A program made the translations under genes and the position numbers. Below the pieces are notes generated by a model that was not told the DNA's origin, made no database searches, and saw only the letters and a program-made list of their open reading frames with translations. Below are positions 14,597 through 51,574 of a stretch of DNA of 64,000 nucleotides, one piece after another. Origin of the DNA: Gemmatimonadales bacterium (GTDB lineage: Bacteria > Gemmatimonadota > Gemmatimonadetes > Gemmatimonadales > GWC2-71-9); assembly GCA_036279355.1 (NCBI GenBank), contig DASUJH010000019.1, positions 1-64,000 on the forward strand. Direction: 5' to 3'. The number at the start of each line of letters is the position of its first letter. Within the stretch, counting starts at the first letter, position 1.

Positions 14597-15850
14597 TCAA
14601 GCCCCTGCCTCTTCAACGGTGGACTGCTGGAGGAGAAACTCGAACATCTTCTCCTCGGTGAGGGAGCGCTCGAGCTCGGGCAGCCGGTTGGCCTTCTGCA
14701 GGGTCGCGTACAACTCGCCCGCAGGCAGATTCCGTGCCGCCGCCATGCTCGCAATGCGCTGATCGAGGTCGGCCTCGGTGGCCCGCAGGTTCTGCTGCGT
14801 GGCGAGCGTCTCGAGCACCAGGTCGCGTTGCACCTGGCTCACGGCAACCGGCCGGAACTGCGCCTCGAACCCCGCGAGCTGGTCGGGCGGAACCTTGTAC
14901 ATGTCCGCGTAAGCATGGAGGAAGCGGTGGACCAGCGATTCCGGCGCCGGGACGTTGTTGGCGTCGACCACCTGCTTGATGAGCTGCTGGCGCACGCTCG
15001 CATCGGCTTCATGCTCGGCGGCACGCTCGAGGTCGGCTCGCACGGCGGCACGCAGGCCAGCGAGGTCCTCGAATTCGCCTACCTCGCGCGCGAAGGCGTC
15101 GTCGAGCGGAGCAAGCTCCTGGCGCTTCACCTCGTGCAGCGTGACGCGCACCCGCCGGGTCTGTCCCCGCCGGCTCGCGTCCGGATGGTCGTCGGGAAAG
15201 CGCACCTCGGCATCCACGCTCTCCCCGGGGAGAAGCGTCATGATCTTCTCTTCGAGATCGGGAATCGCCTGCCCCTGGCCGAGGATTACGGAGTATGGCT
15301 GCGAGGTGGCGCTCGGCTCCTGGTCGAGCGGCACGACGTCCACGCGCACGAGCTGGCCCGGCACCGGCTTCATTCCCTCGACCGGAAGCCATGCGGCCTT
15401 CTCCTCGCGCAACTGCTCAAGTTGCTCGTCGACCGCTGCATCGGTCACGGTGGCCGCCGGGCGCGTCACCCGGAAGCCGCCGGTGCGCGCGAGGTTGAGC
15501 TCGGGCCGCACCTCGACCAGAAGCTCGAACTCGACGGGCCTCCCTTCCTCGAACTTGAGATTCCGGATGGAGGGATCGGCGACGGGCTGGAGCGATTCGC
15601 TGTTGCGGGCTGTCTCCCAACTCTCACGAATGATTTCCTCGAGCACCGATTGCCGGATGGCGTCGGTGTATCGCTTGCGCACGACACCCTCCGGCGCCTT
15701 GCCCGGCCGGAACCCCGGCAGCCGCGCGCGCCGCGCGAAGTACTGGACCGCCCGGGTCTCCGCCTGGCGCACCCGATCCACCGGCACGGTGACGTGGAGC
15801 GACTTGGACGCGGCGTCTTCGGAGGTTTTTTCGACTAAGATGTCCGCCAT
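14597..15850 (-). CDS. tig: Trigger factor (ribosome-associated chaperone / prolyl isomerase)
   Basis: This 417-residue chaperone binds at the ribosome exit tunnel. The ribosome-docking signature GFRPGKAPEGVVRKRY lies near residues 46-61. A PPIase (FKBP-like) domain spans about 150-240, and C-terminal helical arms follow. It is the first gene of tig-clpP-clpX-engB, a common chaperone-protease cluster. The 71 bp upstream hold a GGCGGTA-type hairpin repeat, which probably ends the PHP gene transcript. Confidence 0.95.
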   Translation of the reverse strand: MADILVEKTSEDAASKSLHVTVPVDRVRQAETRAVQYFARRARLPGFRPGKAPEGVVRKRYTDAIRQSVLEEIIRESWETARNSESLQPVADPSIRNLKFEEGRPVEFELLVEVRPELNLARTGGFRVTRPAATVTDAAVDEQLEQLREEKAAWLPVEGMKPVPGQLVRVDVVPLDQEPSATSQPYSVILGQGQAIPDLEEKIMTLLPGESVDAEVRFPDDHPDASRRGQTRRVRVTLHEVKRQELAPLDDAFAREVGEFEDLAGLRAAVRADLERAAEHEADASVRQQLIKQVVDANNVPAPESLVHRFLHAYADMYKVPPDQLAGFEAQFRPVAVSQVQRDLVLETLATQQNLRATEADLDQRIASMAAARNLPAGELYATLQKANRLPELERSLTEEKMFEFLLQQSTVEEAGA

Positions 15851-15859
15851 GGGCAGGAA

Positions 15860-15930
15860 TCTAAGCGGGAAGGGCGGGAAAGCGGAAAGGCGGTAGGGGC
15901 GTCCCTAACGCCTCTACCGCTTTACCGTCG
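15860..15930. repeat. GGCGGTA-family inverted repeat, copy A
   Basis: Purine-rich left arm (AAGCGGAAAGGCGGTAGGGG) and pyrimidine-rich right arm (CGCCTCTACCGCTTTACCG) can pair into an imperfect hairpin of about 16 bp. It straddles the stop codon of the PHP gene and precedes tig. The right arm shares the unit CGCCTCTACCGC with the copy at 17153. It probably acts as a transcription terminator of the PHP gene. Confidence 0.5.
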
Positions 15931-16932
15931 TTGCTGCGCGTCCTCCCGAGCCTCTGCCTCGAGCAGCCGGCGGCGGTATGCGGCGAGCGGATCCGCGGGC
16001 GCGGCGCGCTCGGTGTTGAGCGCCCCGGCCTTGGCGAGCAGTGCCGCGCGCCGCGCGAGGCGGGTGCTGCGCGCGCGCGCGGCGCGGTCCTGGAACCGCT
16101 CGACCCGGTCGTAGATGGCGCGCACCGCGTACAGCAGCCCGAGACGAACCGGGTCCCATGCGGTGGCACCCGAGAACCGCATGGTGCGGCCCTCGTTGGT
16201 GAAGCGCCCCGCGCGGAGCTCGTCGAGGGGTTCGGCGTCCGGACGGTCGAGGACGACGCGGGTCTGGCGGTCGTTGCTGCCGTCGTGCTGGTCCAGGCCG
16301 GCAAACCCGACCACGTTGGTCCGTTCGCGCCGAATGCGCCTCAAGAGCGCGATGGCCTTGGGGTCGGGGAGGTACCTGGTGTTGTAGGCAGCGTTCCAGA
16401 CCTCCACCGCATCCACGCCCGTCAGGACCGTCCTTGGCGGCTCGGCCCGGCAGAGCTTGGGGTGGGCCAGCGCAAGGAAGTCGGCGCGCGAGCGGGCGAG
16501 CGCCACGAACTCTTCCGGCGTGGCCGGCGCGATCCATTCGCGGAGCCCGAACGCGAGGAGGTGGAGGCCGCGGAACCCGGCAAAGCGGAACTCGAGCCCG
16601 GGGATGATCCGCACAGCCGAGTCGGATTGCTCCCTGCATTCGCGGCAGAGCTCGGCAAACCGCTGGGCGTCGAGGTCTTCGGCGTGATCGGTGAGACCGA
16701 CGAACCCGATGCCTCGCGTGAGCGCCAGCGCGCGCAGCCGGGCGATGGAATCGCGCCCGTCGTGGGAATAGGTGCTGTGGACGTGGAGAATGCCGGTGCG
16801 GCGTGCGCCCGGCCGCGGCGAGCGTTGCATCAGGGAAACATCGGCGCGCTGCGTCACGCCGGATTGTTCGGCGTGTATCGCCTGAGTCACCGCCTCGCGC
16901 GGGTTGTCCGCGCGGAACGCCGGCTCCGACAC
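15922..16932 (-). CDS. PHP-domain metal-dependent phosphoesterase-like protein
   Basis: This 336-residue protein has the polymerase-and-histidinol-phosphatase fold. Motif I is HVHSTYSHDG near residues 50-59, motif II is GLTDHAED, and further metal ligands lie in LALAHPK and FAGLDQHDGSN. Residues about 40-265 form the domain. The C-terminal 70 residues are Arg/Ala-rich and helical. The PHP fold holds two or three metal ions and cleaves phosphoesters; the substrate is unknown. GTG at 16932 is used; ATG at 16830 is possible and would still keep motif I. It is a single gene; an SOS-box-like site lies about 95 bp upstream. Confidence 0.85.
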   Translation of the reverse strand: MSEPAFRADNPREAVTQAIHAEQSGVTQRADVSLMQRSPRPGARRTGILHVHSTYSHDGRDSIARLRALALTRGIGFVGLTDHAEDLDAQRFAELCRECREQSDSAVRIIPGLEFRFAGFRGLHLLAFGLREWIAPATPEEFVALARSRADFLALAHPKLCRAEPPRTVLTGVDAVEVWNAAYNTRYLPDPKAIALLRRIRRERTNVVGFAGLDQHDGSNDRQTRVVLDRPDAEPLDELRAGRFTNEGRTMRFSGATAWDPVRLGLLYAVRAIYDRVERFQDRAARARSTRLARRAALLAKAGALNTERAAPADPLAAYRRRLLEAEAREDAQQRR

Positions 16933-17152: not shown

Positions 17153-17193
17153 GGCGGTAAAGAGGGTACGTCCTTACCGCCTCTACCGCCCTT
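17153..17193. repeat. GGCGGTA-family inverted repeat, copy B
   Basis: The left arm GGCGGTAAAGAGGGTA pairs imperfectly with the right arm TACCGCCTCTACCGCC. The core CCTTACCGCC plus TACCGCCCTT is shared with the copy at 23189-23281. It lies 5 bp downstream of tRNA-Leu (minus strand) and could end its transcript. Confidence 0.5.
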
Positions 17194-17197
17194 CGCA

Positions 17198-17279
17198 TGC
17201 GAACGCCGGGAGTCGAACCCGGACCCCTTGCGGGACAGGATCCTAAGTCCTGCGCGTCTGCCGATTCCGCCACGTTCGC
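17198..17279 (-). tRNA. tRNA-Leu (anticodon UAG)
   Basis: The sequence folds as a class II tRNA. The acceptor GCGAACG pairs with CGTTCGC, the D-loop contains GGCAGACGC, and the anticodon stem GGACT/AATCC-type surrounds UAG (CTTAGGA). A variable arm follows (about CCCGCAAGGGG), then T-arm GGGTTCGACTCCC. Discriminator A is present and the 3' CCA is not encoded. It reads CUA/CUN leucine codons. Confidence 0.95.
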
Positions 17280-21497: not shown

Positions 21498-23078
21498 TTA
21501 CTGGGCGTCGCTCAGCTTGATTCGTTCCACCCGCCGAAGATGCGCGCTCGGGCTGTAGACCCGGAGTGAAATCACGCTGCCGGGCTTCTGCGCCTTGACG
21601 GCCGCCCGAAGATCGGCCTCCGATTTTACCGGCTTGCCCTCAACCGCAACGATCACGTCGGGCCCACCGGTCTCCTCGTCGAACAGCACGTCCCACGACG
21701 GGCCGCCCGGCACGACGTTGGTGACCAGCACGCCGCGCGCGTCCGCCGGAATCTGCAGCTCCTGGGCGATCTGGGGTGTCAGCGCCTGGACGCTCACGCC
21801 CATCCGGCGGGTGAGCAGGCTGCCGCCCGCTTCCACGGCCTCGGTGTCGATGGTGGGCGCGTTCATCCGATCCGCGACCTGCGGCTCGTCCTCCAATGCC
21901 TCCAGCTTCACATCGAACGTCTTCCGCACGCCGCCCTTCCGCGCCACCTCCACCTTCACGACGTCGCCGGGCTTGCGGAAGCCGACCACCTGCTGGAGCT
22001 GGCCGACGTACTCGACCGGTTTCCCATCGATCGCGATGATGATGTCCCCCGCCTCGATGCCCGCCTTCTTTGCGGGCGAGTCCGCGTTCGGGATGTCCTT
22101 CACCACGACGCCGCGGATCTCGGGCAGACCGACGTACTGCGCGTCGTTGAGCGAGACGTTGGCGATCGAGACGCCGAGTGCCGCGCGGTGCACCTTGCCG
22201 TCGGTGATGAGCTGATTCATCACGGTGCGCACGAGGTTGATGGGGATCGCGAAGCCGTACCCCGAGTAGAACCCGGTCTGGCTCGCGATCGCCGAGTTGA
22301 TGCCGATGACCTCGCCGCGCACGCTCACGAGCGGGCCGCCCGAATTGCCCGGGTTGATCGCGGCGTCGGTCTGGATGAAGTCCTGGATGCTCCCGACCCC
22401 GCGGTTCGGCAGGCTCTGCAGCGCGCGCCCCTTGGCGCTTACGATGCCGGACGTCACCGTGAAGGTGAGCCCCTCACCGAGCGGATTGCCGATGGCCAGC
22501 ACCCAGCTCCCCACCCGGGCATCGTCGCTATTGCCGAGCGCCACCGGGGGGAGTCCCTTGGCATCGATCCGGAGAACGGCCACGTCGGTGTTGGGGTCCG
22601 TGCCCACGACCTTGGCCTTGAACTCCCGGTGGTCCAGCAGCCGGACGATCACCGTCTCGGCGCCTTCGACCACGTGGTTGTTGGTGAGGATGTATCCGTC
22701 GGAGGAGACGATGAAACCCGAGCCACTCCCTTGCTCGAGCTCGGGGTGCTGGGGTTGGCCGAAGTGCGGAAAGAACCGCTCCATGCCGGGCGGCAGCCGT
22801 TGCTGAGTCGGCTTTTCGGTGTGCTGCGCCTTGATGTAAACCACGCTCGGCCGCACGTGATCGGCGACGGCGGCAAACGCCTCGCTCAGATCGATGAGCG
22901 GCTTGGCGGCCGGAATGCTCGGGGCCTGCACGGTGGGGATGGCGCTGGCGAGCCGGGCCTTCTCCTGGGCGGAAGTGCGGCTGGGTAAATCGAGAAGGCC
23001 GGCAAAGAGGAGGCCGAGCGCGAAAGCAAATGCGACCAGACCACCGAACTTGAGCCAGTTGAGGGAGCGAGTGGACAT
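21498..23078 (-). CDS. degP: Periplasmic serine protease, HtrA/DegP (Do) family
   Basis: This 526-residue protease and chaperone acts on misfolded envelope proteins. An N-terminal signal anchor spans about 10-30. The trypsin-like domain has His135 (NNHVVEGAE), Asp165 (NTDVAVL) and Ser246 (NPGNSGGPL). Two PDZ domains follow at about 300-390 and 420-520. The ATG at 23078 gives a normal signal; an in-frame ATG 10 codons upstream (23108) is possible. It lies 228 bp downstream of dnaK on the same strand, separated by the large GGCGGTAA repeat, so it probably has its own promoter. Confidence 0.95.
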   Translation of the reverse strand: MSTRSLNWLKFGGLVAFAFALGLLFAGLLDLPSRTSAQEKARLASAIPTVQAPSIPAAKPLIDLSEAFAAVADHVRPSVVYIKAQHTEKPTQQRLPPGMERFFPHFGQPQHPELEQGSGSGFIVSSDGYILTNNHVVEGAETVIVRLLDHREFKAKVVGTDPNTDVAVLRIDAKGLPPVALGNSDDARVGSWVLAIGNPLGEGLTFTVTSGIVSAKGRALQSLPNRGVGSIQDFIQTDAAINPGNSGGPLVSVRGEVIGINSAIASQTGFYSGYGFAIPINLVRTVMNQLITDGKVHRAALGVSIANVSLNDAQYVGLPEIRGVVVKDIPNADSPAKKAGIEAGDIIIAIDGKPVEYVGQLQQVVGFRKPGDVVKVEVARKGGVRKTFDVKLEALEDEPQVADRMNAPTIDTEAVEAGGSLLTRRMGVSVQALTPQIAQELQIPADARGVLVTNVVPGGPSWDVLFDEETGGPDVIVAVEGKPVKSEADLRAAVKAQKPGSVISLRVYSPSAHLRRVERIKLSDAQ

Positions 23079-23188
23079 GGAGCCCTGAGGGGAAAGGTGG
23101 AACCGCATGGCTATCTAAGATATCGGGGTTTGTGGGCCCTTGGGGTAGAGGAGGGGGTAAAACGGACGGTAAGGGCGGTACAGAACGG

Positions 23189-23281
23189 GCGGTAAGGGCG
23201 GTAAAGGCGGTAAAGGCGGTAAAGGCGGTAAAGTGCTCGCCGGCCGAGTCCTTACCGCCTTTACCGCCCTTACCGCCTACC
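23189..23281. repeat. 9-bp GGCGGTAAR tandem array facing an inverted array (copy C)
   Basis: Five tandem 9-bp units GGCGGTAA(G/A) run from 23189 to about 23233. A 17-nt spacer follows, then three inverted units TTACCGCC(T/C) to about 23275, ending CCTTACCGCCTACCT. The arms can pair in several registers to make a long hairpin between dnaK and htrA. Related copies are at 15860, 17153 and 50173. It probably ends the dnaK transcript and can slip by 9 bp. Confidence 0.75.
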
Positions 23282-23306: not shown

Positions 23307-25235
23307 TCACTTCTTCCCCTCATCCACTATCTCGTAGTCTGCATCCACCACATCCCCCTGGGCCGCGGGTTCCTGTGGCTGGCCGCCGGCTTCGGGGCCG
23401 GCGCCAGCACCGGCGCCCTGACCTGTGCCCCCACCCTGCGCCTGGTAAAGCGCGGCGCCAGCCGCCGAGTAAGCGGCGTTCAGCTCGTCCAGCGCGCGGC
23501 GGATGCCATCGGCCTCACCGGTGCGGAGCGCCTGCTTGCCGGCGTCGAGCGCCGAGTCGAGCCGGGTCTTGGCGTCGGCCGGGAGCCGGTCGACCCACTC
23601 CTTGCTGTCCTTCTCGACCCGATACAGCATGCCGTCGAGTTGGTTGCGGGCCTCGATCTGGTCGCGCCGCTGCTGATCCTCCGACGCGTGCTGCTCGGCG
23701 GCCTTCACCATCTTGTCGATCTCGGTCTCGCTCAGGCCCGACGAGGCCTCGATCCGGATCTTCTGCTCCTTGTTCGTCGCCTTGTCCTTGGCCGAGACGT
23801 GGAGGATGCCGTTGGCATCGATGTCGAACGCCACCTCGACCTGCGGCATGCCGCGGGGTGCCGGCGGGATGCCGGTGAGCTGGAACTTGCCGATGGTGCG
23901 GTTATCCGTCGCCATCTGCCGTTCGCCCTGGAGCACGTGGATTTCGACCGTGGTCTGGTTGTCCTCCGCGGTCGAGAAGGTCTCCGACTTCTTGGTCGGG
24001 ATCGTCGTGTTCCGCGGGATGAGCACGGTGGTGACGCCGCCCAGCGTCTCGATGCCGAGCGAGAGCGGGGTCACGTCGAGCAGGAGCACGTCCTTCACCT
24101 CGCCGCCGAGCACGCCGCCCTGGATTGCGGCGCCGATGGCCACGACCTCGTCCGGGTTCACCGAGCGGTTGGGCTCCTTGCCGAAGAAGTCCTTCACGAT
24201 CTGCTGGATCTTCGGGATGCGGGTCGAGCCGCCGACGAGGATGACTTCGTCGATCTGATTCGGCTTGATGTTGGCATCCTTGAGCGCCTGCTCCATCGGC
24301 GGAATGGTCCGCTGGATCAGGTCGTCCACCAGTTGCTCGAACTTGGCCCGGGTGAGCGAGTAGTTGAGGTGCTTGGGCCCGCTCTGGTCCGCCGTGATGA
24401 ACGGCAGATTGATGTCGGTCTGCTGGGTGCTCGACAGCTCCATCTTGGCCTTTTCCGCCGCCTCCTTGAGGCGCTGGAGGGCCATGGGGTCCTTGGAGAG
24501 ATCGATGCCCTGGTCGCGGCGAAACTCGGCCACGAGCCAGTCGATCACCCGCTGGTCGAAGTCGTCGCCGCCCAGGTGGGTGTCGCCGTTGGTGCTCTTC
24601 ACCTCGAAGACACCCTCGGCCAGCTCGAGGACGGAGATATCGTAGGTGCCGCCGCCCAGGTCGAACACCGCGACCTTCTCGTCCTTTTTCTTGTCGAGCC
24701 CGTAGGCGAGCGCCGCGGCAGTGGGCTCGTTGATGATGCGCTTCACCTCGAGCCCGGCGATGCGGCCGGCATCCTTGGTGGCCTGGCGCTGGGCGTCGTT
24801 GAAGTAGGCCGGCACCGTGATGACGGCGTCGGTGACGGTGCTGCCGAGGTAGTCTTCGGCGGTCTGCTTCATCTTCTGGAGGATCATCGCGGAGATTTCG
24901 GGCGGCGTGTAGGTCTTGCCCGCGATCTCGACCGCAGCCATGCCGTTGGGGCCGGCCGCGATCTTGTATGGGACGCGCTTGGTCTCCTCGGTCACCTCAT
25001 TCATTCGGCGACCCATGAAGCGTTTGATGGAGAAAATGGTCTGCTTGGGATTGGTCACGGCTTGGCGCTTGGCCACCTGGCCCACGAGCCGCTCGCCGTC
25101 CTTGGTGAAGGCGACGACCGAAGGTGTGGTCCGTCCGCCCTCGGCGTTCGGGATCACTACCGGGTCGCCGCCCTCCATGACGGCGACAACCGAGTTGGTC
25201 GTGCCCAGGTCGATGCCGATGATCTTGGAAGCCAT
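23307..25235 (-). CDS. dnaK: Molecular chaperone DnaK (Hsp70)
   Basis: This 642-residue Hsp70 has N-terminal GIDLGTTNS, the phosphate-2 motif [10 protein letters not shown], the adenosine motif LVGGSTRIP, the linker [13 protein letters not shown], and the substrate-binding domain with a lid. The tail ends [10 protein letters not shown], close to the EEVD-like bacterial ending. A Gly/Ala-rich linker of about 20 residues precedes the tail. GAAAGGACC serves as the ribosome-binding site. No grpE or dnaJ is adjacent, and I find no CIRCE element or convincing sigma-32 promoter in the 127 bp upstream. Confidence 0.98.
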
Positions 25236-47984: not shown

Positions 47985-50171
47985 GTGATTCCTCCGGCGG
48001 ATCACCTCGTGGACGCGCTCTCGGATCAGCTTCGCGGTACGCTCGCCGGTCGCTATGCGATCGAGCGCGAGCTCGGCCGTGGCGGCATGGCCACGGTCTA
48101 TCTCGCGCGCGATCTCAAGCACAGCCGGCCGGTCGCGCTCAAGGTGCTGCACCCGCACCTCGCCGCGAACGTCGGGTCGGACCGCTTCCTGCGCGAAATC
48201 GAGATTGCCGCCCGGTTGAGCCACCCGCACATCCTGACGCTCATCGATTCGGGCGCAGCCGGCGCCCTTCTCTACTACGTCATGCCCTACGTCGAGGGCG
48301 AATCGCTTCGCAGCCGGCTCGAACGTGAGCCGCGCGTGCCGCTCGCCGAGGCGCTCGCAATCATCCGGCAGGTGGCGGGCGCGCTGGCCTACGCCCACGC
48401 CCGCGGCGTCGTCCATCGCGACATCAAGCCGGAGAACGTGATGCTGCACGAGGGCGGCGCCATCGTCACCGACTTCGGCATCGCGAAGGCGCTGAGCGCG
48501 GGCGCCGCGGAGAGCCTCACCCAGACCGGCACCGCGCTCGGCACGCCGGCGTACATGAGCCCCGAGCAGGCCGCGGGCGAATCGGAGCTGGACGGGCGGA
48601 GCGACGTGTACAGCCTGGGATGCATGGTGTTCGAGATGCTGGCGGGAGCGCCCCCGTTCACCGGCCCCACCGCGCAGGCGGTGATGGTCCGGCGGATTAC
48701 CGATTCGGCGCCGTCCATTCGCACGGCGTGGGCCTCGGCGCCCGCGGAAATCGATCGCGCAGTGAGCCGAGCGCTGGCGCGGGAGCCGGCGGCGCGCTTC
48801 GCCACGACGCTGGAGTTCGCCCAGGCACTCGCGGCGGCGCCCGAGCGGCCGCGTTCGACGCCCACGGTGCTCACGGCGCACACCGCCGGCCCGCGATCCA
48901 TCGCCGTGCTTCCGTTCGCGGACATGAGTCCCCAGAAGGATCAGGACTACTTCTGCGAGGGGATCGCGGAGGAGATCATCAACGCGCTCACCAAGATCCA
49001 GGCGCTCCGGGTGGCGTCGCGGTCATCCGCCTTCGCGTTCAAGGGCAAGAATCAGGACATCCGGCAGGTGGGCGAGCAGCTCGGTGCCGGAAGCGTGCTC
49101 GAGGGGAGCGTGCGCAAGGCGGGCAACCGGATCCGGATCACCGCGCAGCTCATCAATGTGAGCGACGGTTATCACCTCTGGTCCGAGCGCTACGACCGCG
49201 AGCTGGAGGACGTATTCGCCGTGCAGGACGAGATTGCGGAGAACATCGTGCGCGCGCTTCGCATCGTGCTCACCGAAGACGAGAAGCGCGCCATCGAAAA
49301 TCCGCGCACCGAAAACGTTCAGGCGTACGACTACTACCTGCGCGGCCGGCAGTTCTTCCACCAGTTCCGCGAGAAGGGCATTCAGTTCGCCCGCCGCATG
49401 TTCGCCCGCGCGATCGAGATCGATCCGCAGTTCGTGCTGGCCTATGCCGGCACCGCCGACTGCAGCTCGTTTCTCTACATGTACTGGGACGCGAGCGCGG
49501 CGAATCTGGAGCAGGCCAACGCGGCGAGCCGCCAAGCGCTCGAGCTGGACCCCGGAGTGGCCGCGGCCCACGCATCGCGGGGGCTGGCGCTCACCCTGAG
49601 CAAGCGGTTCGATGAGGCGCAGCAGGAGTTCGAGACGGCCATCCGGCTCGATCCGCGGCTCTTCGAGAGCTACTACTTCTACGCCCGCGCCTGCTTTCAG
49701 CAGGGCCGCCTCGACGAAGCGGCGCACTGGTTCACCCGCGCTGGCGACGTCCGGCCGGAGGATTATCAGACGCGAAGCCTGCTAGCGGCCACCTACAGCG
49801 GGATGGGCCGGGAGACGGAGGCGAACCAGGCGCGCCGCGAGTCGGTGCGCATCATCGAACAGCATCTCGAGCTCAATCCCGATGACGCGCGCGCCCTGTA
49901 CTTCGGCGCGATCGATCTCGCGGCCCTCGGCGAGCGAGGCCGCGCCCTCGACTGGGCCAATCGCGCGCTGGCCCTCGACCCGGAAGACTCCGGCGTGCTG
50001 TACAACGTCGGCTGCGTGTACGCCAAGCTCGACCGCAACGACGAGGCGCTCGACTGCCTGGAGCGCGCGGTGCAGAATGGGTTTGGGCATCGCGAGTGGA
50101 TCGAGAATGACAGCGATCTGGCGGGGTTGAAAGGGGAGGGGCGGTTCCAGGCTTTGTTGTCGAAGTTGTAA
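47985..50171 (+). CDS. Serine/threonine protein kinase with TolB-like domain and C-terminal TPRs
   Basis: A 728-residue protein. The Hanks-type kinase domain (about 23-285) has the Gly loop GRGGMATVY, Lys53, HRDIKPEN with Asp146, DFG at 163-165 and APE-like MSPEQ. A TolB-like/FlgO segment begins near 305 (SIAVLPFADMSP). TPR repeats fill about 470-720. No TM helix is visible, so it is probably cytoplasmic. GTG 47985 is used; GTG 48009 is also possible. This architecture is very frequent in Gemmatimonadota and Acidobacteriota. Targets are unknown. Confidence 0.9.
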   Translation: MIPPADHLVDALSDQLRGTLAGRYAIERELGRGGMATVYLARDLKHSRPVALKVLHPHLAANVGSDRFLREIEIAARLSHPHILTLIDSGAAGALLYYVMPYVEGESLRSRLEREPRVPLAEALAIIRQVAGALAYAHARGVVHRDIKPENVMLHEGGAIVTDFGIAKALSAGAAESLTQTGTALGTPAYMSPEQAAGESELDGRSDVYSLGCMVFEMLAGAPPFTGPTAQAVMVRRITDSAPSIRTAWASAPAEIDRAVSRALAREPAARFATTLEFAQALAAAPERPRSTPTVLTAHTAGPRSIAVLPFADMSPQKDQDYFCEGIAEEIINALTKIQALRVASRSSAFAFKGKNQDIRQVGEQLGAGSVLEGSVRKAGNRIRITAQLINVSDGYHLWSERYDRELEDVFAVQDEIAENIVRALRIVLTEDEKRAIENPRTENVQAYDYYLRGRQFFHQFREKGIQFARRMFARAIEIDPQFVLAYAGTADCSSFLYMYWDASAANLEQANAASRQALELDPGVAAAHASRGLALTLSKRFDEAQQEFETAIRLDPRLFESYYFYARACFQQGRLDEAAHWFTRAGDVRPEDYQTRSLLAATYSGMGRETEANQARRESVRIIEQHLELNPDDARALYFGAIDLAALGERGRALDWANRALALDPEDSGVLYNVGCVYAKLDRNDEALDCLERAVQNGFGHREWIENDSDLAGLKGEGRFQALLSKL

Positions 50172-50172
50172 G

Positions 50173-50187
50173 GCCTTACCGCCTACC
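50173..50187 (+). repeat. GGCGGTA-family half-repeat, copy D
   Basis: The 15-mer CCTTACCGCCTACCT is identical to the end of the large repeat at 23189-23281, and stands directly after the kinase-TPR stop codon. It lacks the inverted arm and so cannot form the same hairpin; it may be a decayed or truncated copy. Confidence 0.4.
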
Positions 50188-50233
50188 TGCTCGCCTTGCT
50201 CCAACCCTCACCCCTGATTACTTTTGCGGGCTT

Positions 50234-51574
<1,341 letters not shown>

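What the first reader, a model, noticed from the sequence alone, without database searches (positions are those of the whole stretch)
15860..15930. Dispersed GGCGGTAA hairpin repeat family in four intergenic regions
Purine/pyrimidine units GGCGGTAR and TTACCGCC recur at 15860-15930, 17153-17193, 23189-23281 and 50173-50187, always next to a gene end. Three copies contain facing arms that can form hairpins; the 15-mer CCTTACCGCCTACCT is identical in two of them. The copies share no protein-coding link. They look like a mobile, REP-like or terminator family not named in my knowledge.
Basis: seen in the sequence. Interest (0 to 1): 0.65.

Follow-up and report, generated by a model that had tools for sequence, protein, structure and literature searches.

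The report
Gene-end palindromes built from 9-bp units
A Gemmatimonadota bacterium carries a few dozen copies of a DNA palindrome built from repeated 9-base units, nearly always right behind the end of a gene, and in related species the same spots are filled by hairpins of quite different sequence, so the hairpin at the gene end seems to matter, or to be attracted there, more than its exact letters.

Summary
The repeat family is real. The unit pair GGCGGTARNGGCGGTA occurs 24 times in the 3.25-Mb genome against 0 for the reversed control. The copies are palindromes: arms of 1-5 tandem 9-bp units (GGCGGTARR / YYTACCGCC) around a loop with a conserved asymmetric core (GCCGGCCGAGTCC). Stems reach about 40 bp and show covariation. 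A covariance model finds 17 distinct copies in the genome. Almost all sit just behind a 3' end: protein genes (22 of 25 tandem contexts), two tRNA-Leu genes and the SRP RNA. One is in-frame in the PolA linker.

The proposed transposase link fails: the only Y1/RAYT-type gene has no copy within 1.5 kb, and related genomes show no association. The copies are not members of the GTAG/CGTC REP superfamily.

The most interesting result is slot turnover. In sister species of a related genus the secY-adk gap holds a strong hairpin in 8 of 8 genomes, from at least five unrelated sequence families.

Best reading: a REP-like dispersed palindrome acting as a 3'-end hairpin (termination, RNase III processing or protection), spread by an unknown route. 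New variant of a known kind.

The parts
15871..15930 (-). degenerate palindromic copy between the trigger factor gene (14597-15850 -) and the 3' end of a PHP-domain gene (about 15922-16932 -); 16-bp stem, overlaps the PHP stop codon
   Evidence: covariance model hit C19:15873-15929
17153..17193 (-). short palindromic copy about 5 bp behind the 3' end of tRNA-Leu(TAG) (17198-17279 -), followed on that strand by ATTTTT: the only classic intrinsic-terminator-like copy in the window part scanned
23165..23281 (-). largest copy in the window: five tandem 9-bp units in the left arm, three in the right arm, core GTGCTCGCCGGCCGAGTCC, 26-nt perfectly complementary arms; at the 3' end of dnaK (23307-25235 -), upstream of an HtrA-type protease gene (21498-23078 -)
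   Evidence: E 3.4e-18
50174..50189 (+). half copy (CCTTACCGCCTACCT) 2 bp behind the stop codon of a Ser/Thr kinase-TPR gene (47985-50171 +), before the SRP54-type gene ffh (50234-51574 +)

Best explanation
The repeats are copies of one dispersed palindromic DNA element, REP-like in distribution. A copy has two arms of tandem 9-bp units (GGCGGTARR and YYTACCGCC) around a short conserved core and sits immediately behind the 3' end of a transcription unit. Transcribed from either side it folds into one long hairpin of up to about 40 bp, which I infer acts as a 3'-end RNA structure: pausing or termination, an RNase III cut between cistrons, or protection of the upstream RNA from 3' exonucleases. 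Copies spread by copying of the whole palindrome (inferred from the shared core and unit order), then gain and lose units by slippage; selection removes copies except in tolerated places, gene ends and, rarely, in-frame protein linkers. The copying machine is unknown and is not an adjacent RAYT. Shown: family, architecture, covariation, 3'-end location, in-frame PolA copy, unrelated hairpins in the same slots of sister species. Inferred: RNA-level role, spreading mechanism.
For: 24 unit pairs against 0 in the control; 17 distinct model-defined copies. Shared core and unit order. 8 pairs with changes on both sides, 0 of 500 shuffles; 92.7% of cells paired against at most 50.5% when slid (few, related sequences). 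22 of 25 tandem contexts closer to a stop codon than to a start. RNA-gene 3' ends: tRNA-Leu twice, SRP RNA. In-frame PolA copy between the 5'-3' and 3'-5' exonuclease domains, not seen in PolA linkers of relatives. Hairpin kept while sequence family changes at secY-adk (8 of 8) and hutU-hutI (6 of 8).
Against: Sense-strand RNA is not preferentially preserved: G-U pairs 41 sense against 47 antisense; sense fold stronger in 8 of 20, so the palindrome may be kept at DNA level or by a two-sided role. Two of eight hutU-hutI gaps have no strong hairpin, so it is not essential there. No clean empty site with target duplication was found. No expression data.
Confidence: 0.6

Rival explanations
1. Intrinsic (bidirectional) transcription terminators that share sequence because they were copied around: the hairpin alone stops RNA polymerase.
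For: Location behind protein, tRNA and SRP RNA genes and between convergent genes; the 17153 copy has stem plus T-run on the tRNA strand; palindromes act on both strands.
Against: Most stems have no T-run. Copies lie inside probable operons: secY-adk and hutU-hutI in G012, a phage-integrase-family gene followed by a proteasome-type (HslV-like) gene in G000. One copy is inside polA. Terminator-like sites are not enriched in the 20 kb scanned (4 against 8.8 in shuffles).
Confidence: 0.3
2. RAYT-mobilised REP/REPIN: the palindromes are non-autonomous elements moved by the genome's Y1 (HUH) transposase acting in trans.
For: One Y1_Tnp gene exists in G000 (C59:9598-9936, E 6e-25) and one in the element-rich G012; palindromic, extragenic, 3'-biased.
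Against: No unit pair within about 1.5 kb of either Y1 gene. G029 (18 matches) and G022 (5) have no detectable Y1 gene, though both are incomplete (86%, 67%), while several genomes with 2 Y1 genes have no match. My tally: 7 of 23 family genomes with Y1 and 2 of 14 without have 5 or more matches, no clear association. No GTAG/CGTC foot.
Confidence: 0.12
3. Classic MITE: a deletion derivative of a DNA transposon with terminal inverted repeats, moved by its transposase with target-site duplication.
For: Dispersed palindrome of about 40-120 bp; in-frame copy in a coding linker; stop codons supplied by the copy (hutU in G012; ABC ATPase in G000).
Against: The number of 9-bp units varies freely between copies, so there are no fixed ends; no target-site duplication or cognate transposase seen. 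Transposase families other than Y1 were not tested.
Confidence: 0.15
4. Locally grown arrays: GC-rich short repeats that expanded by slippage and were made palindromic by template switching, independently at each site.
For: Variable unit number; 7- and 9-bp unit arrays of different sequence in sister species; palindromicity without sense-strand bias.
Against: Separate copies in G000 share the same asymmetric core and unit order; G012 copies match each other over about 100 bp at 71-80% identity.
Confidence: 0.15

Closest known systems
REP elements of the GTAG/CGTC superfamilies (Di Nocera 2013, PMC3733652)
   Same: Dispersed extragenic palindromes, mostly just behind stop codons in tandem or convergent contexts; sometimes supply the stop codon; intragenic copies in DNA repair genes including DNA polymerase I.
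   Different: Stems of 26 to about 40 bp made of tandem 9-bp units instead of 5-13 bp; no GTAG/CGTC foot; no RAYT next to copies; unit number variable.
REPIN/BIME (paired inverted REPs, PMC3116915)
   Same: Two inverted halves around a spacer, forming one long hairpin.
   Different: Halves are tandem nonamer arrays; no RAYT link found; copy number only a few dozen.
Rickettsia palindromic elements (RPE; as discussed in PMC3733652)
   Same: Palindromes that can sit in-frame inside genes.
   Different: Mainly extragenic here; sequence relation was not tested.
Multicopy nucleotide sequences of Geobacter (PMC2996986, PMC2700814)
   Same: Families of intergenic palindromes and short direct repeats, mostly species-specific.
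   Different: There palindromic and direct-repeat families are described separately; here both are combined in one element. Their supplementary alignments were not seen.

Membership tests
GTAG/CGTC REP superfamily | unpaired GTAG or CGTC tetranucleotide at one foot of the stem | tested here: not met
   The left feet of L056, L060, L050 and L080 carry neither tag; GTAG occurs only inside or overlapping the paired units (e.g. L048)
GTAG/CGTC REP superfamily | short stem of 5-13 bp, element 20-40 bp (PMC3733652) | tested here: not met
   26-nt perfect arms at 23188-23277; about 40 pairs in L056 and L060
GTAG/CGTC REP superfamily | extragenic, close to the 3' end of upstream genes | tested here: met
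   22 of 25 tandem contexts, three RNA-gene 3' ends
RAYT-associated REP/REPIN | RAYT gene flanked by the repeats | tested here: not met
MITE | fixed terminal inverted repeats and target-site duplication | tested here: inconclusive
   gaps without a strong hairpin found (G097, G095 hutU-hutI) but flanks too diverged to call a duplication
Intrinsic terminator | G+C-rich hairpin directly followed by a T-run | tested here: not met
   met by the 17153 copy only among the window copies scanned; not a property of the family as read
Rfam RNA family | match above gathering score | tested here: not met
   no Rfam match at the copies above threshold; only sub-threshold miRNA-like hairpin noise
Rickettsia palindromic element | in-frame insertion in protein genes | tested here: met
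   PolA copy L075:1923-2033; a one-armed array in a histidine kinase linker is weaker. Sequence homology to RPE not tested, so no membership is claimed

The most novel reading that the evidence does not exclude
Gene ends in this bacterial family are hairpin 'slots'. The slot keeps a strong palindrome while its sequence family is replaced outright between sister species, by arrays of 9-bp units (GGCGGTAAG, CACGAAGGR, CACAGAGGN), arrays of 7-bp units (AAGTGGC, GGTAAGC, AAAAGTG) or GTCACCCTGAG-type palindromes. Either selection acts on the presence of a hairpin and not on its sequence, or one general process builds and homogenises palindromes from short tandem units.
Probability: 0.3. Interest if true: 0.7.

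Novelty: new variant of a known kind. Interest (0 to 1): 0.5.

Why it matters
REP-like repeats are usually explained by a dedicated transposase. Here is a palindrome family with a different build, no detectable transposase partner, and positions that sister species fill with unrelated hairpins. That makes it testable whether gene-end hairpins are kept for function or merely tolerated. The lineage offers natural replicates: one slot, many hairpins, in close genomes.

Tried and rejected
RAYT link: tested and not supported. RNA-only selection by G-U asymmetry: no bias. Rfam: no family. Literature search by element sequence: nothing relevant; no paper on REP elements in Gemmatimonadetes found. Plasmid and phage records: no match; 8 of 2.9 million viral contigs hold the three-unit pattern, not followed up. 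Weak 2-mismatch hits inside genes were treated as chance, since the reversed control gave 28-34 per strand against 62. The rpL5 N-terminal GGK repeats are coding, not the element. A target-site duplication could not be read because no congeneric genome of G000 is held.

Full report
OBSERVATION. The four sites described are present. In the window GGCGGTAAGG with up to one mismatch occurs 15 times against 3.6 +/- 2.1 in dinucleotide shuffles. The window lies in a 3.25-Mb, 60-contig genome. Closest named records for the HtrA-type protein are Gemmatimonadales MAGs. In the whole genome GGCGGTARNGGCGGTA has 24 matches and its reversed control none. The stem-loop pattern GGCGGTAN{4,34}TACCGCC has 16 places (each seen on both strands) against 1 control place. 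With two mismatches the signal is 124 against 62, so weak single hits should not be trusted.

ANATOMY. About 40 fetched stretches show one architecture: a left arm of 1-5 units GGCGGTARR, a short core, a right arm of units YYTACCGCC. The best copies (L056, L060, window 23181-23281) fold into one stem of about 40 pairs. The core is asymmetric and shared between copies (...GCGCCGGCCGAGTCC...), and the order of unit variants is partly shared too (for example GAYGGTAAA second from the core), which points to descent from one element rather than independent growth. Seven aligned copies give 8 base pairs with changes on both sides (0 of 500 shuffles reach this) and 92.7% paired cells against 34-51% when the partner is slid. 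The alignment is small and the sequences related, so this is support, not proof. A covariance model finds 17 distinct copies in the genome (E-values rough; seven copies trained the model) and matches in 51 of 102 genomes of the family, most in G032, G012, G074, G079.

LOCATION. With a simple codon-usage gene caller, 22 of 25 copies in tandem contexts lie closer to a stop codon than to the next start (one-sided binomial about 8e-5, my arithmetic). Convergent gaps are used as well. Two copies far from a protein 3' end turn out to follow RNA genes: window 17153 follows tRNA-Leu and L080 follows SRP RNA. L056, already next to a protein stop, also follows a tRNA-Leu on its other side. Some copies provide the stop codon of the upstream gene (ABC ATPase in L072; hutU in G012). 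One copy is inside polA, in-frame, between the 5'-3' exonuclease domain (ends residue 279) and the 3'-5' exonuclease domain (starts 355), residues about 304-341; relatives have other linkers there. A one-armed array in a hybrid histidine kinase linker may be chance.

TURNOVER. Within the genus of G012 (same family as the window genome, different genus) I compared two orthologous gaps. Between secY and adk all eight species compared have a strongly folding palindrome (z -3.8 to -12.1), but they fall in at least five sequence families without detectable similarity: GGCGGTAAG/GACGGGAAG units in G012; GTCACCCTGAGCGAAGCGAAGGG-like in G090, G097, G093; AAAAGTG units in G095, G098; AAGTGGC units in G094; GGTAAGC units in G092. 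Between hutU and hutI six of eight have a hairpin and two do not; there CACGAAGGR and CACAGAGGN 9-bp arrays replace the G012 element. The dnaK 3' end in other genera likewise shows other hairpins, though only some are stronger than shuffles.

MECHANISM. Most likely the copies act as 3'-end RNA hairpins. That explains tRNA, SRP RNA and protein gene ends, both orientations, and conservation of hairpin but not of sequence. Pure termination is unlikely for all copies because some lie between genes that are probably in one operon (secY-adk and hutU-hutI in G012; a phage-integrase-family gene and a proteasome-type gene in G000) and most lack a T-run. RNase III processing or 3' protection would fit these better; this is inference. 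Against an RNA-only view, the sense strand is not favoured in G-U content (41 against 47). How the copies spread is not shown. The Y1-transposase hypothesis was tested directly: one Y1 gene in the genome, no copy in its locus; same for G012; no clear association across 37 family genomes (my tally).

COMPARISON. The nearest described kind is the REP class. Di Nocera et al. 2013 (PMC3733652) describe the same 3'-end preference, stop-codon supply and intragenic copies in repair genes including DNA polymerase I. Their defining foot tags and short stems are not met here. Geobacter papers (PMC2996986, PMC2700814) list species-specific multicopy palindromic and direct-repeat families. I found no description of palindromes with tandem 9-bp arms or of slot turnover, but the held library lacks most subscription journals.

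VERDICT. Real, ordinary in kind (REP-like dispersed palindromes), unusual in build, and with an interesting turnover pattern that deserves a systematic test.

Noticed in passing
L070:1361-2101 (-) and L103 (G012): Ribosomal protein L5 has an N-terminal Gly-Gly-Lys-rich extension encoded by GGCGGTAAG-type units in two genera: coding, not palindromic, but the same 9-mer.
   Followed up: partly
L275:2740-3050 (G012): A nonamer palindrome whose loop contains a second, nested palindrome (TGTCATCCCGAGGAGCGTCAGCGACGAGGGATC and its complement).
   Followed up: no
L308, L309, L311, L313 (hutU-hutI gaps of G096, G094, G093, G091): Palindromes with arms of 9-bp units CACGAAGGR or CACAGAGGN: same architecture with another unit sequence.
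   Followed up: partly
L088:2000-2200 (G000 C59): GTTTGCGCGCC 11-bp tandem repeats upstream of the genome's only Y1-transposase gene, which lies next to genes that read like ATP synthase subunits.
   Followed up: no
L080:1878-2090: A copy directly behind the SRP RNA gene and before a gene whose start reads like dnaX (not tested by family search).
   Followed up: partly
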